DNA of 64,000 nt from an uncultured bacterium (GTDB lineage Bacteria > Cyanobacteriota > Vampirovibrionia > Gastranaerophilales > Gastranaerophilaceae): NCBI GenBank assembly GCA_949284985.1, contig CASDWY010000029.1:62001-126000 (forward strand). The letters run 5' to 3'. Positions 10,768 through 50,889 of this stretch are shown here, in pieces. Numbering within the stretch: position 1 is the first letter of the stretch; each line of letters starts with the position of its first letter. The position numbers were made by a program, and so were the translations under genes. The notes under the pieces are model-generated. The model ran no database searches, had not been told where the DNA came from, and worked only from the letters and a program-made list of their open reading frames with translations.

Positions 10768-11178
10768 CTATATTTTTTTATATCTTTTTATATCTTTTAA
10801 AACATCTATAAGATGTTTTGAATCTATGATAGAAACTTTATTTTTAAAACATCTATTTGTGTATATGTTTTTTGTTGAAATCCCCTTGATGAGTGATAGT
10901 TTTATAGAATATGGATCTAATGATGTTGGTTTTTGGATACCGAACATTTCTCTTAAGTTAGCTGCTTCTTTGTGGTTTGAGCTAGGTTTATTTGTTAGGT
11001 TAAACGAGTCTACCATATTAAATAGGGTTTTTAATATACGTTTTAATTCTTTATTTTTAGTTGCATATGAGTGCAAGGCTCCAAAGTTTTGTTTATAGCC
11101 TGTGGGTGTATTAGTATGGGTGGTATTTTTAGTAAAAATTTGATTTGGATTTGATGCAGAATTAATTGTTAGTGTCAT
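10768..11178 (-). CDS. Small hypothetical protein
   Basis: 136 residues, basic, not recognised. The N-terminus (about 1-30) is polar, rich in Asn and Thr, and probably disordered, and is followed by QNFGALHSYATKN. The middle and end are Lys/Leu-rich and likely helical. No signal peptide or membrane segment. A strong ribosome site (GGAGGAAACT) directly before the ATG supports a real gene over the overlapping plus-strand frame. A short Asn/Thr-rich start leading into an 'FG' element recurs in other unknown proteins here (39097-39630, 49138-50745). Confidence 0.7.
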   Translation of the reverse strand: MTLTINSASNPNQIFTKNTTHTNTPTGYKQNFGALHSYATKNKELKRILKTLFNMVDSFNLTNKPSSNHKEAANLREMFGIQKPTSLDPYSIKLSLIKGISTKNIYTNRCFKNKVSIIDSKHLIDVLKDIKRYKKI

Positions 11179-34494: not shown

Positions 34495-34914
34495 ATGGGA
34501 TACGCTATTTTTGCAGCACGAAAATTAATGTTGAATACTCGGATAAACAATTTGCAGTTTAGAATAATGAGTTTATCTCAACAACAGCAATCTTTATCTG
34601 AGCAGTCAGGAATGATTCAAAGTTATTTTTCGCAACAAGGAATGCTTCTTGGTAATCAAACAGGAGGAATCTTTGGACAAAATATGGGCGATTATAGGCA
34701 GTTTATGTCCTATATGGGAGTGGTTTCTTCATATCAAAGTATGCTAAATGCAGCTCAACAAATGATGCTAAAACCTGTCGCTATCCAAGAAAATCAAATT
34801 GATAATGAACGCAAGAGATTGGAAACCCAATTAAAAGCAGCAACGACAGAGCTTGAAAAAGTTGAACAAGCAGAAGATAAACAAATAGAAAGATCAGCAC
34901 CAAAATTTGCATAA
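34495..34914 (+). CDS. Small hypothetical coiled-coil protein
   Basis: 139 residues, Gln- and Met-rich. N-terminal helix (about 1-45, NTRINNLQFRIMSLSQQQQS), a Gly/Phe-rich middle, then a charged coiled coil (about 100-135, NERKRLETQLKAATTELEKV). The shape resembles helical secreted or structural proteins, but no family is recognised. ACGAGGAATAAG precedes the ATG and a strong terminator follows, so it is a single-gene unit. Confidence 0.72.
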   Translation: MGYAIFAARKLMLNTRINNLQFRIMSLSQQQQSLSEQSGMIQSYFSQQGMLLGNQTGGIFGQNMGDYRQFMSYMGVVSSYQSMLNAAQQMMLKPVAIQENQIDNERKRLETQLKAATTELEKVEQAEDKQIERSAPKFA

Positions 34915-38911: not shown

Positions 38912-39115
38912 ATGTTAAAGGAATTTATAAAGAATGTTCACAATTTGGAAGACTTGTTGGTTGAGTGTGCAGAAATGAGCAATTTCAACAGTGGTATCAG
39001 CAAGCTGTTAATGAATAAAAACCTAGCCTATCTTAAGGAGAAAGAGGCTGAAAAAGAAAGAGCATTGGTTGATTTAACAAACTGCGAAATGTTTCGTTAT
39101 CTAAGCGCTACGTAA
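38912..39115 (+). CDS. Very small hypothetical protein
   Basis: 67 residues, charged and helical (LAYLKEKEAEKERALVDL), no signal peptide or membrane segment. ATAGGAGTAAAT precedes the ATG, a good ribosome site. Its last 19 bases overlap the convergent gene at 39097. Unknown function. Confidence 0.6.
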   Translation: MLKEFIKNVHNLEDLLVECAEMSNFNSGISKLLMNKNLAYLKEKEAEKERALVDLTNCEMFRYLSAT

Positions 39116-39630
39116 TTTTTTAGTAGATGAAAAAGCTTTGCAAATGGTGAAAAAACAATTGATTTAAGTTGCCGACTTTGGTATTCGGCAACTAATCGTT
39201 GTATTTCTGCTTCCATTTTCTGTTGAATTTCTAGTAATTTTTGATAATGACTTTTGTCTGACTTTAAAAAAGATGATTCTACAATTTTTTTATGTTCTTC
39301 GAGTTCAAGGCGAAGTCTTGCAATTTTGATTTTAAGCTTTAATTCTTTATCATTGATTTTATGAAACTTTGAGTTTGAGAGAATTTCCGTATCAAAACCA
39401 TCAATTATTGAATTATCCTGATTAATATTTAAAGTATTTAAATCAGGAGTCTTTTGACTAGATTGGACAGTCAAATTGCCAAACGGCGGAATGCTTGATT
39501 GAGAAAATATGTTTGAATTTTTAATAGGTGCAGTTTGAAGATGGTTCTTTTGCAGCTCGCTATTTTTAGCAGACGGCAATAGTCCATTTTTATCTATATT
39601 TTCCAGAAAGATTTTATGATTATTATTCAT
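39097..39630 (-). CDS. Hypothetical protein with C-terminal coiled coil
   Basis: 177 residues. The N-terminal half is polar and disordered (rich in Asn, Ser, Gln) with PPFGNLTVQ. A Lys/Glu/Leu-rich coiled coil (about 92-155) follows, then a short basic, aromatic tail (SPFAKLFHLLKNYVALR) that may be amphipathic. No ribosome site; CATAAT ends 6 bases before the ATG. Not recognised; likely lineage-specific. Confidence 0.62.
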   Translation of the reverse strand: MNNNHKIFLENIDKNGLLPSAKNSELQKNHLQTAPIKNSNIFSQSSIPPFGNLTVQSSQKTPDLNTLNINQDNSIIDGFDTEILSNSKFHKINDKELKLKIKIARLRLELEEHKKIVESSFLKSDKSHYQKLLEIQQKMEAEIQRLVAEYQSRQLKSIVFSPFAKLFHLLKNYVALR

Positions 39631-48409: not shown

Positions 48410-49138
48410 TTATTTATTTAGATATTGTGATAACAAGTTTCCGGTTTGGTTTACATTGCTTTGTGCAGAAAATGATTTTATATGTTCGGATTTTTCGTTA
48501 TTAACAATATCTGTTTTATTTTCTTTAGGTTTATTAGTTATTTTGCCTTTATTTAATATCTTTTCTTGTGCCCAACTTGCCATTGGAGTTGCAATAAATG
48601 GGACAATAATACGTTTTGCTATTGTAGTTGAGGCAATTAATGAGGTTAAAAAGCTAAAAGTGTCTTCTGAAGTAGTACGTATAGAGTTAAAAGCTTTATC
48701 AACTTGGGCCTTTGAAACTTTATCCATTCCTGGTTGGCTTCTTAGATAAGTTGTATAAAGATTTTTAGATTTTTCTGAAAATACTTTGTTAAATATTTTA
48801 CCAAAAATTGCTTTTTGAACTTTTTTATTGCTTATACTGAAAAACATTAATAACTGAGATAAAATCATAAGTCCGCCATTTGTAAGATCAAGCGCTGCAA
48901 CAAATGACCTTTTTTCTTCAGGTATTTTTTCATTATTTAAACTTTGTTTAACGTACATATAGCAGCCAATACTGTCTTTACCGACTATAGATGCAATCGT
49001 TGTAAATGCCATAGCTTTCTCAGGTGTAATGTCAAATTTATTACAAGCCATTTGCATTGGCTTACTGTTAGCAATCCATTTAAACGGTTTAGAAGCATAG
49101 TTAAGAGCGTTTATGAGTATTGGCGAGGAGACTTTCAT
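48410..49138 (-). CDS. Lineage-specific protein with hydrophobic segments, paired with upstream gene
   Basis: 242 residues, not recognised. Hydrophobic stretches at about 43-58, 84-105 and 160-190 could be membrane helices. The C-terminus is polar and Lys/Asn-rich. Its ATG overlaps the stop of the 535-residue gene by one base, with GAGGAGG at the end of that gene as ribosome site. The two are therefore coupled and likely work together. Confidence 0.68.
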   Translation of the reverse strand: MKVSSPILINALNYASKPFKWIANSKPMQMACNKFDITPEKAMAFTTIASIVGKDSIGCYMYVKQSLNNEKIPEEKRSFVAALDLTNGGLMILSQLLMFFSISNKKVQKAIFGKIFNKVFSEKSKNLYTTYLRSQPGMDKVSKAQVDKAFNSIRTTSEDTFSFLTSLIASTTIAKRIIVPFIATPMASWAQEKILNKGKITNKPKENKTDIVNNEKSEHIKSFSAQSNVNQTGNLLSQYLNK

Positions 49139-50745
49139 TATTTACCTCCTCTTGCTTTTATTTTGGCTTTTTCTTCCGGAGCTTCACACTTATCATTGCG
49201 TGCAAGATTTGGGAAAAATATATCCATAAATCGTGGATATACCCAGTTAAGTGTAGTACATGTTACCGGCAGTGTAATAAATAAACCAAATAATATATTT
49301 GTAATTTGTTTAAATGCTTTAACTCTTCCACCTACTGTTTTTTCCCAAGTTTTGAACATATCCTCAGAAAAATTCTTTTGATTAAAATTAAATACTTTAG
49401 TTTTTAAACTTTGTATTAATTCTTTGGCTGTTTGAGTTGCAGATTTCGGATTTATTTTTAGTGAATCAATTATTTTTAATTGATTAAGTAAATTGTCACC
49501 CATGTCTTTGTAGTAAGCTTTTTGGTATAATTCTATCAACTTAAATTTATCACCATTGCAATTTTTAATTTCATTTATTCTGGCAATTATTTTTTGTGCG
49601 TATTCTTTTTTATCTGCGTCATTAACTCTTGCTGAGAGTGAATTTGCTATTGCTTGAAAAAGTGAATTTTTATCTTTCTCTGTGGATATTTCTCTAATTT
49701 GTTTAATAGCAGATTCAATGTTGTTTGATTTATTATTTACAATGTCAGATAATATTTTTTTTAGATTTTCAGCATTATCGCATATTGCGTCACAAGACTC
49801 TACTGCGTTATTGTATAGGGTCATTTTTTTAAGAGTACCTTCAACTCTATGCTTAATAGCTGGAAGTGTGGCGCGATCTTTAAATTCTTGAGCAAGCTTT
49901 ACTATATCAGCGTTATCGTCTTTTAACCATATATCTAAAACTTTGCTTACATCTTCTTCGCGTGTAATAGAATTTAAATCGTTACACATGCTTTTGATTT
50001 TAAATTCATTATTTGGATTGATTAAAAGCTTTGCTCTTTCTACTTTTTGTGTTATTTCTTTAGCAGAATTTTTTTCAATTAATTCCTTAATCTCTGTTTT
50101 ATATGATTCAAGTGTTTTATTCATTAAATGAATTACGTCGTCTTGCTGAAGTTGTTTATTAGCATTGAACTTTATAGTGCCTTCTTCTTCAAGTGCTTTT
50201 ATAATTTGTATTGCTTGCTCTTTAACTTTAGAATCTGCATATGCTTGGGCTTGTGCTCCGGTAATACCTAACTTTTTGCATTCTTTTATAAAGTATGCAT
50301 GATCCTTTAAATTAGATTTGTCAAAGTAAGGAGAATTACCTAAAATACCATTATTGGACATGTAATTATAGAACATATCGAGTGGTTTTGTAAGTCCTGC
50401 TTGAATAAGTATTGCCAGTACAGCAGAAACAGGTTGACGCATTGCTGTATATTTTTTAGTTTTTTCATCTGCTTTTGACAAAGGGTTAAAAGCAATAAAT
50501 ATAGGTGCTACAAGCCCTGTACCAAGAGCATTAATAATAATTCCTCCAGCTTCACCTTTTAGGCATCTTAATTTATCCATTATTTTAATTGCGCTTGGCA
50601 TGCCATCTTTAATAGTGTCAGCAATTTTTTTTGTACTTTGTTGGGTATATGAGGTAATTGTTTTTTCAACCCCACCAAAACTAGTAGTTTGTGGCATTTT
50701 TCTGCTATCAAAATTAACATGTGGATTGATTTCATTTACTTCCAA
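49138..50745 (-). CDS. Large lineage-specific protein, membrane-associated, unknown
   Basis: 535 residues. N-terminus polar with QTTSFGG (about 19-25). A hydrophobic segment (about 67-88, ALGTGLVAPIFIAFNPLS) is followed by MRQPVSAVLAILIQAGL (about 99-116). A long Lys/Glu/Asn-rich helical region (about 150-480) follows, and then a second hydrophobic stretch (about 490-520, LFGLFITLPVTCTTLNW). The start is probably TTG at 50745, with GGAAGG 9 bases ahead; the next in-frame ATG would remove 16 residues. I recall similar proteins in Gastranaerophilales genomes, without known function. Confidence 0.7.
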   Translation of the reverse strand: MEVNEINPHVNFDSRKMPQTTSFGGVEKTITSYTQQSTKKIADTIKDGMPSAIKIMDKLRCLKGEAGGIIINALGTGLVAPIFIAFNPLSKADEKTKKYTAMRQPVSAVLAILIQAGLTKPLDMFYNYMSNNGILGNSPYFDKSNLKDHAYFIKECKKLGITGAQAQAYADSKVKEQAIQIIKALEEEGTIKFNANKQLQQDDVIHLMNKTLESYKTEIKELIEKNSAKEITQKVERAKLLINPNNEFKIKSMCNDLNSITREEDVSKVLDIWLKDDNADIVKLAQEFKDRATLPAIKHRVEGTLKKMTLYNNAVESCDAICDNAENLKKILSDIVNNKSNNIESAIKQIREISTEKDKNSLFQAIANSLSARVNDADKKEYAQKIIARINEIKNCNGDKFKLIELYQKAYYKDMGDNLLNQLKIIDSLKINPKSATQTAKELIQSLKTKVFNFNQKNFSEDMFKTWEKTVGGRVKAFKQITNILFGLFITLPVTCTTLNWVYPRFMDIFFPNLARNDKCEAPEEKAKIKARGGK

Positions 50746-50889
50746 TGCAGCTACCCTTCCTATGCCTACATATAAAATAAAACAAAAATATTAAAAAAAT
50801 TGCTACTAAAATAATGTTTTATACACCAAAGTATTAGGCAAAAGTTTAATGGCAAATCTTGTAATTTTAGAAAATTATACAATGAAAAT

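What the first reader, a model, noticed from the sequence alone, without database searches (positions are those of the whole stretch)
48410..50745. Coupled pair of large lineage-specific proteins
The 535- and 242-residue proteins overlap by one base and both have hydrophobic blocks. They match nothing I can name. The first begins with a TTG and a polar leader containing SFGG, similar to FG elements at the N-termini of two other unknown proteins here. They could be components of an undescribed envelope structure.
Basis: partly seen in the sequence, partly recalled or inferred. Interest (0 to 1): 0.52.

Follow-up and report, generated by a model that had tools for sequence, protein, structure and literature searches.

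The report
Paired membrane proteins with shared tag
Two neighbouring genes of unknown function, found so far only in a group of non-photosynthetic gut relatives of cyanobacteria, always travel together and probably make one membrane-linked complex, and the first protein starts with a short tag that also recurs on many unrelated proteins of these bacteria.

Summary
Window 49138-50745(-) (A, 535 aa, TTG start) and 48410-49138(-) (B, 242 aa) overlap by one base (TAATG). Neither matches a known family at a meaningful score. They are an obligate pair: B lies directly downstream of A in 80 of 80 named relatives examined, all bacteria of the Gastranaerophilales type. Predicted structures are all-helical. 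Each has three moderately hydrophobic helices around a strongly conserved loop; A carries an extra, fast-evolving ~320-residue helical insert. The disordered N-terminal leader of A is unalignable except for a [P/T][N/S]F[T]G motif (64 of 70 orthologues; shuffled mean 2.7). The motif recurs, 3-4 times over background when families are pooled, at the N-termini of unrelated proteins, including an extra guanylate kinase and a 5'-nucleotidase without a Sec signal. In the window's own genome alone the enrichment is not significant (p = 0.09). Best reading: a co-translated heteromeric membrane-associated complex whose A subunit bears a lineage-wide targeting or docking leader. What reads the leader is unknown. 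A second, non-flagellar flagellar-type export gate, found in all genomes of the order tested, is a candidate but unproven.

The parts
49138..50745 (-). Gene A, 535 aa, TTG start; N-terminal leader + 3-helix membrane-type core interrupted by a large helical insert
50755..50760 (-). GGAAGG, likely ribosome-binding site of A upstream of the TTG
   Evidence: read directly
50638..50745 (-). Disordered N-terminal leader of A (residues 1-36)
   Evidence: pLDDT < 50
50671..50682 (-). SFGG, FxG leader motif (residues 22-25); F23 in 24 of 24 aligned orthologues and >= 90% of 70
50353..50565 (-). Conserved core 1 of A (residues 61-131): two hydrophobic helices and the loop NPxxxxxxxTxxYxAxRQPxSA, mean identity 0.58 over 61-130
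49372..50352 (-). Variable all-helical insert of A (residues 132-458), mean identity 0.24, length 263-383 aa among 70 orthologues
49201..49371 (-). Conserved core 2 of A: long third helix with LP.TC..LNW.YPRFMD..FP (residues 459-515), mean identity 0.51
49145..49150 (-). AGGAGG, likely ribosome-binding site of B inside the 3' end of A
   Evidence: read directly
48410..49138 (-). Gene B, 242 aa; start overlaps the stop of A by one base (TAATG)
48833..49024 (-). Conserved core of B (residues 39-102): two helices and the loop QSxxNxxIPExxRxFVAxxDLxNG, mean identity 0.65
48545..48712 (-). Third long helix of B (residues 143-198, KR.IVPFIATPLA)

Best explanation
A and B are two co-translated subunits of one heteromeric, all-helical, membrane-associated complex specific to Gastranaerophilales. 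Shown: strict gene order with overlap, three moderately hydrophobic helices per protein around a near-invariant polar loop, and a disordered leader on A whose only conserved element is an FxG motif (consensus [P/T]-[N/S]-F-T-G, F about 28 residues from Met). Also shown: the same motif is over-represented at the N-termini of unrelated proteins of the lineage. Inferred: the helices insert into or lie on a membrane with the conserved loops at the A-B interface or an active surface; the variable insert of A is the soluble part that faces a changing partner; the FxG leader is a short targeting or docking signal read by one common receptor.
For: 80 of 80 named loci have B within 400 nt downstream of A. 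Of 76 gene-called pairs 50 overlap by 1 nt and 18 by 4 nt. 19 of 19 distant loci, including the short A'B' form and other families, keep the pair. Models: A pLDDT 85, pTM 0.73; B pLDDT 80, pTM 0.58; the same order of two helices, loop and long third helix. Three hydrophobic segments in each family. Cores 0.46-0.65 identical against 0.24 for the insert. Leader: 64 of 70 with the strict motif against 2.7 shuffled (maximum 8 in 300 shuffles). A position matrix trained on A only finds N-terminal excess in other families: 26 hits per 49,283 windows against 33 per 260,648, and 3.4-3.6 fold per F site, family-weighted. An N-terminal head M-[KRNQ..]-[IVT].. goes with the motif (30 of 112 against 336 of 2,779, p = 3e-5). 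Some B proteins that gained an N-terminal extension carry F-G-S/A or F-E-G there. Leader proteins include a second guanylate kinase beside the leaderless housekeeping copy in genus g10 (second copy in 3 of 3 genomes; leader read in 2) and a UshA-like 5'-nucleotidase in the window's own genome.
Against: B's segments peak at only 1.42 on the 19-residue Kyte-Doolittle scale, so it may not be transmembrane. No complex was predicted; the A-B interface is inferred. For single genomes the N-terminal excess is significant in G140 (p = 1.6e-4) and G253 (p = 0.003) but not in the window's own genome (p = 0.09) or G006 (p = 0.15). The 57 leader proteins scanned against Pfam were picked by eye. Sequence homology of A to B is not shown (hhalign probability 9, 0.3 and 2%).
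Confidence: 0.55

Rival explanations
1. The leader is an export signal and A-B are a secreted, membrane-inserting pair (translocator-like), exported by the second, non-flagellar flagellar-type gate that these bacteria carry.
For: Second FHIPEP gate protein in 192 of 192 order genomes. FlhB- and FliP-family genes in 12 of 12, while only 5 of 12 have flagellin. Operon FliE-FliF-x-FliH-FHIPEP-ATPase in G000. The leader resembles the two-part signal of early flagellar subunits: hydrophobic residues at the extreme N-terminus and a second site about 30 residues on (PMC8983047, abstract and passages). Weakly hydrophobic helices and enzyme paralogues with leaders would fit secreted proteins.
Against: A hydrophobic residue at F+4, expected for the FxxxPhi form of the gate motif (form recalled), is not enriched: 41% in A, 30% in others, background 37%. 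The pair is not next to export genes in the loci read. No chaperone or secretin was looked for. B is not detected in 43 of 192 genomes that all have the gate.
Confidence: 0.12
2. The leader docks A to a cytosolic partner (adaptor, protease or scaffold); A and B are ordinary inner-membrane proteins.
For: A disordered tail with one conserved short motif is typical of a docking peptide. Leader proteins are functionally mixed: guanylate kinase, M16 peptidase, CheR, GGDEF, helicase, HNH, hydrolase, 5'-nucleotidase. The M16 protein has a second FxG in its interdomain linker, which suits docking better than N-terminal export.
Against: No partner identified. Extra enzyme copies and a normally exported 5'-nucleotidase are not explained by docking alone.
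Confidence: 0.3
3. The FxG motif is a family-specific feature of A, and its recurrence elsewhere is compositional coincidence.
For: No significant excess in the window's own genome or in G006 when tested alone. The curated list was chosen by the motif.
Against: Excess measured per F site and per family (3.4-3.6 fold), with a matrix trained only on A. Head association p = 3e-5. Second guanylate kinases with a leader beside leaderless copies. Head-plus-motif rate 48 of 1,121 in three family genomes against 4 of 364 in a relative of another family (p = 0.003).
Confidence: 0.15
4. A and B are a defence, toxin-antitoxin or prophage pair.
For: Coupled two-gene layout; a weak PADLOC match of B to ZorB (E = 0.011).
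Against: No PHROG match and no viral fold match at E <= 0.001. Usually one copy per genome, present in 27 to 30 of 41 genera of the family, no mobile-element context in the loci read.
Confidence: 0.04

Closest known systems
Two-part N-terminal export signal of early flagellar rod/hook subunits (FlgD: residues 2-5 and gate recognition motif 36-40)
   Same: Non-polar residues at the extreme N-terminus and a second short site tens of residues on, in an unstructured N-terminus, no Sec signal
   Different: Here the second site is S/N-F-x-G without an enriched hydrophobic residue at F+4, and it is found on enzymes and large membrane-type proteins; no export shown
Type III secretion hydrophobic translocator pairs (YopB/YopD, IpaB/IpaC type; recalled, not tested by sequence)
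   Same: Tandem genes, helical, marginally hydrophobic segments, coiled helical region, no Sec signal
   Different: No sequence or fold match, both partners have three segments, no chaperone gene beside them by eye; host-directed role not suggested by any data
Lineage-wide sorting tags in general (LPXTG, PEP-CTERM; recalled)
   Same: A short motif shared by many unrelated proteins of one lineage, which implies one common reader
   Different: N-terminal, no adjoining hydrophobic helix or charged tail, reader unknown
BAR-type three-helix bundles (top rows of the structural second look)
   Same: Three long helices in similar order
   Different: Z at most 7.8 for A and 6.9 for B, below what the tool treats as meaningful for helical bundles; these helices are hydrophobic

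Membership tests
Any Pfam/NCBIfam/PHROG/PADLOC family | Match over the curated cut-off or clearly significant | tested here: not met
   Best Pfam 15.1 bits against cut-off 27; best NCBIfam 14.6 against 51.85; PHROGs none; PADLOC E >= 0.011
Early flagellar (type III) export substrate | Non-polar residues at the extreme N-terminus | tested here: met
   A orthologues begin mostly MKV/MKI
Early flagellar (type III) export substrate | Gate recognition motif with a hydrophobic residue four after the F (form recalled) | tested here: not met
   41% (A), 30% (other leaders) hydrophobic at F+4, background 37%
Early flagellar (type III) export substrate | Wide spacing between the two signals (about 30 residues in FlgD) | tested here: met
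   F at median residue 28, range 17-46 in A; shorter, down to about 7, in some other leader proteins
Early flagellar (type III) export substrate | Actual export through the gate | not testable with these tools
   Needs an experiment
Type III translocator pair | Class II TPR chaperone gene adjacent | not tested
   Neighbours were read by eye only; no chaperone profile was run
Sec-exported or lipoprotein | N-terminal signal peptide or lipobox | tested here: not met
   Leader of A is polar and disordered; the first hydrophobic segment peaks at residue 77. Judged by eye and hydropathy; no dedicated predictor was available
A and B as members of one family (paralogues) | Profile-profile similarity | tested here: inconclusive
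   hhalign probability 9, 0.3 and 2%, always the same loop aligned; 2 of 19 distant B proteins hit the A profile at E 0.0035-0.005; same helix order
BAR-domain fold | Structural match well above unrelated rows | tested here: inconclusive
   Z 6-8, among unrelated helical proteins

The most novel reading that the evidence does not exclude
Gastranaerophilales run a second, non-flagellar, flagellar-type export system present throughout the order, and the FxG leader is its substrate signal. A-B would then be a conserved exported pair that inserts into a membrane, and dozens of leader-bearing enzymes, including spare copies of housekeeping ones, would be its cargo. This would be a protein export pathway with its own N-terminal code in a major lineage where genomes without flagellin had been read as having lost flagella.
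Probability: 0.12. Interest if true: 0.88.

Novelty: new variant of a known kind. Interest (0 to 1): 0.58.

Why it matters
The pair defines two protein families without known relatives in the libraries searched, conserved across most genera of a major gut lineage that is largely uncultured. More important, it exposes a short N-terminal leader shared by unrelated proteins: if one receptor reads it, the location of many unknown proteins of these bacteria becomes predictable from sequence. The export gate found on the way gives one concrete, testable candidate reader, and the unflagellated genomes may not be mere relics of motility.

Tried and rejected
Homology of A and B: three profile comparisons gave probabilities of 9, 0.3 and 2%, so I do not claim it. 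Known folds: Foldseek against PDB and BFVD gave nothing at E <= 0.001. The second look gave BAR domains and receptors at Z < 8, usual for long helices; no library of predicted cellular proteins was on hand. PDB sequence profile matches of A (best E = 0.0037, to a designed helical bundle) cover the helical insert only and look like coil bias.

FxG as the flagellar gate motif FxxxPhi: rejected in that exact form, because F+4 is not hydrophobic more often than background. Clustering of leader genes near short A'B' pairs: 9 of 111 against 48 of 1,121, p = 0.063 and chosen after looking; not used. A first count of N-terminal FxG in the window's genome with longest-ORF starts showed no excess, and the later per-site test is still not significant for this genome alone (p = 0.09). 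A loose regular expression for leaders caught many false cases and was dropped. Promoter and terminator scan of the locus: no more than shuffles.

Literature, negative: listings only. For Melainabacteria with type III secretion, 3 papers were listed; passages were read in two of them (PMC7018530, PMC11319675), neither describes such a system, and the third (PMC7203096) was not opened. PMC4040986 was read in passages only. The library lacks most subscription papers.

Full report
OBSERVATION. The two ORFs are real and on the minus strand. A is 49138-50745 (535 aa, TTG) and B is 48410-49138 (242 aa); the stop of A and the start of B share one base (TAATG), with AGGAGG just upstream of B's ATG. 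Orthologues start MKV/MKI/MDV where A starts MEV, which supports the TTG. Neither protein matches Pfam, NCBIfam, PHROGs, PADLOC or PDB sequences in a meaningful way.

DISTRIBUTION AND COUPLING. With single sequences, A is found in 114 of 191 and B in 126 of 191 genomes of the family, 27 and 30 of 41 genera. With a profile, B is in 149 of 192 genomes of the order, including 16 of the 22 sampled from other families. With a profile, A is in 133 of 289 genomes of the class; outside the order there is one marginal match (E = 4.7e-4). A scan of named species genomes found 184 relatives of A, of which the best 80 loci were kept; most are titled as Gastranaerophilales, Melainabacteria or uncultured gut bacteria, and a few carry other names that look like mislabelled bins. 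In 80 of 80 of these loci B lies within 400 nt downstream of A on the same strand. In 76 pairs with clean gene calls, 50 overlap by one base and 18 by four; the two other called A genes (L112, L162) had B only in the six-frame search. Nineteen more distant loci (L229-L247; a twentieth fetch of 1 kb, L248, was not used) keep the pair in 19 of 19. Ten of these (L229-L238) carry a short form, A' 164-179 aa and B' 181-216 aa, which in several genomes coexists with the long pair.

ANATOMY. AlphaFold2 on 70 and 67 sequences gave all-helical models: A pLDDT 85, pTM 0.73; B pLDDT 80, pTM 0.58. In A residues 1-36 are disordered. Helices 65-85 and 94-131 are followed by a ~320-residue helical insert and a long helix 459-510. 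In B the order is 39-67, 74-102, short helices, then 143-198. Both families show three hydrophobic segments, moderate in strength compared with known membrane proteins of the genome. Conservation is concentrated in the helical cores (A 61-130 0.58, A 456-515 0.51, B 39-102 0.65, B 143-200 0.46 mean identity), while the insert is at 0.24. The near-invariant residues sit in the loop between helices 1 and 2: A N87, T96, Y99, R103-Q104-P105, S107; B Q65, N69, I72-P73, R77, F79, D84, G88. The helix order suggests that A and B share a fold, but sequence comparison does not establish it (weak cross-hits in 2 of 19). No solved or viral fold matches well.

THE FxG LEADER. The leader of A cannot be aligned except for one spot. 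F23 is present in 24 of 24 sequences of the first alignment and in at least 90% of 70. 64 of 70 leaders carry [PTVLQAI][NSAQGHYTK]F[TSKGRQ][GAS], against a mean of 2.7 and a maximum of 8 in 300 shuffles; F lies at median residue 28, range 17-46. A matrix trained only on A leaders (79 sequences) was then run on proteins outside the A family. At score >= 9 it gave 26 hits in 49,283 N-terminal windows (17 families) against 33 in 260,648 interior windows (25 families). Counted per F site and weighted by family in a larger pool (3,010 proteins, 1,096 families; 119 A-like proteins left out), the excess is 3.4-3.6 fold. Proteins with the motif more often start M-[KRNQESHD]-[IVT]-x(1-2)-[IVN] (30 of 112 against 336 of 2,779, p = 3e-5). 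Genome by genome the result is uneven: G140 22 of 664 F sites against 31 of 2,758 (p = 1.6e-4), G253 of another family p = 0.003, but G006 p = 0.15 and the window's own genome p = 0.09. By a head-plus-motif rule the three family genomes have 48 of 1,121 genes and G253 4 of 364 (p = 0.003). Some B proteins with a longer N-terminus carry the motif there too.

WHICH PROTEINS CARRY IT. Of 57 leader-like proteins chosen by eye, Pfam named some: 5'-nucleotidase (2), CheR methyltransferase (2), guanylate kinase, M16 peptidase, GGDEF, DEAD/Hel308-type helicase, hydrolases, HNH and others (NCBIfam agrees). Two cases are telling. Three genomes of genus g10 have a normal guanylate kinase and a second one. 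Where I read it (two of the three) the second has a ~50-residue leader MQINSI...NVEFGT, while the housekeeping copies have none. The 5'-nucleotidase-like protein of the window's genome (L084:10685-12205) starts MNKILPHNVNFSGG with no Sec signal, although relatives of that family are usually exported (general knowledge).

A CANDIDATE READER. All 8 genomes first tested have an FHIPEP export-gate protein, and a 701-aa version from an unflagellated genome matches 192 of 192 genomes of the order, at 77-98% identity in the listed best matches other than itself. Not every one of the 192 matches need be this version: a few weaker ones (for example G045, G063, G124) may be partial or flagellar copies. 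FlhB-family and FliP-family genes are in 12 of 12 genomes while flagellin is in only 5 of 12; flagellin-bearing genomes tend to have an additional set. In the window's genome the operon reads FliE, FliF, an unmatched protein, FliH, FHIPEP, T3SS-type ATPase (L261:11746-18924), apart from a second, flagellar set (L263). Soo et al. 2014 read the partial flagellar gene sets of most Gastranaerophilales genomes as unable to encode a flagellum (PMC4040986, passages); the conservation here suggests instead a separate system in use. The layout of the leader recalls the two-part export signal of early flagellar subunits (PMC8983047, abstract and passages), but the expected hydrophobic residue at F+4 is not enriched, 43 of 192 gate-bearing genomes lack a detectable B, and no gate-free genome of the class could be used as a control. 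I therefore keep this link as an open, bold reading, not as the explanation.

MOST LIKELY WORKING. A is made, then B by coupled translation; they fold together as a helical, membrane-associated complex. The conserved loops form the shared working surface, A's insert meets a lineage-variable partner, and the FxG leader takes A to, or holds A at, a place shared with other leader proteins. Coupling of the genes, predicted helix layout, conservation pattern and leader motif are shown; complex formation, membrane location and the leader's function are inferred.

Noticed in passing
L261:11746-18924; L264, L265, L266, L267, L268 (same operon in five other genomes): A second, non-flagellar flagellar-type export system (FliE-FliF-x-FliH-FHIPEP, ATPase in G000; FlhB and FliP elsewhere): FHIPEP in 192 of 192 order genomes, FlhB and FliP in 12 of 12, though 7 of 12 lack flagellin.
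   Followed up: partly
L085:7417-8904 (27-29 kb downstream of the window on the same contig): Orphan 495-aa protein carrying only the C-terminal (cytosolic) part of FHIPEP; a similar truncated match occurs in 8 of 8 genomes tested.
   Followed up: no
L255-L257 (genus g10 genomes): Second guanylate kinase beside the housekeeping copy in 3 of 3 g10 genomes; a ~50-residue FxG leader was read in two of them, L256 and L257.
   Followed up: partly
L084:10685-12205: UshA-like 5'-nucleotidase of the window's genome with a short polar FxG leader in place of a Sec signal.
   Followed up: partly
window 10768-11178 (-): Unknown 136-aa protein with a clear FxG leader (QNFGA); window 39097-39630 (-) is a doubtful second case.
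   Followed up: partly
L262:14401-15743: Two adjacent unknown proteins (222 and 213 aa) with textbook leaders (KPAFTG, NPSFQG), lying between the two export-gate loci of the window's genome.
   Followed up: no
window 34495-34914; L263:13734-14063; L085:8974-9489; L268:12806-14608: Recurrent proteins whose N-termini look, by eye, like axial (flagellin-type) helices (e.g. ASQARLLSLTQRINNNELE); the window one has no Pfam match. Possible substrates of the second export system.
   Followed up: no
G000:C28:23102-23512 and G016:C16:36986-37396: Flagellin N-terminal domains inside open frames of 3,249 and 2,238 codons, far longer than normal flagellins.
   Followed up: no
G195:C3 near 191999: A weak B match lies in an open frame reported as 24,078 codons long, an extraordinary length.
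   Followed up: no
L107:16751-19567 and relatives L126, L138, L148: About 938-aa two-domain M16 peptidase with an FxG-like motif in the leader of some members and a conserved one in the linker between the two domains (about residue 495).
   Followed up: no
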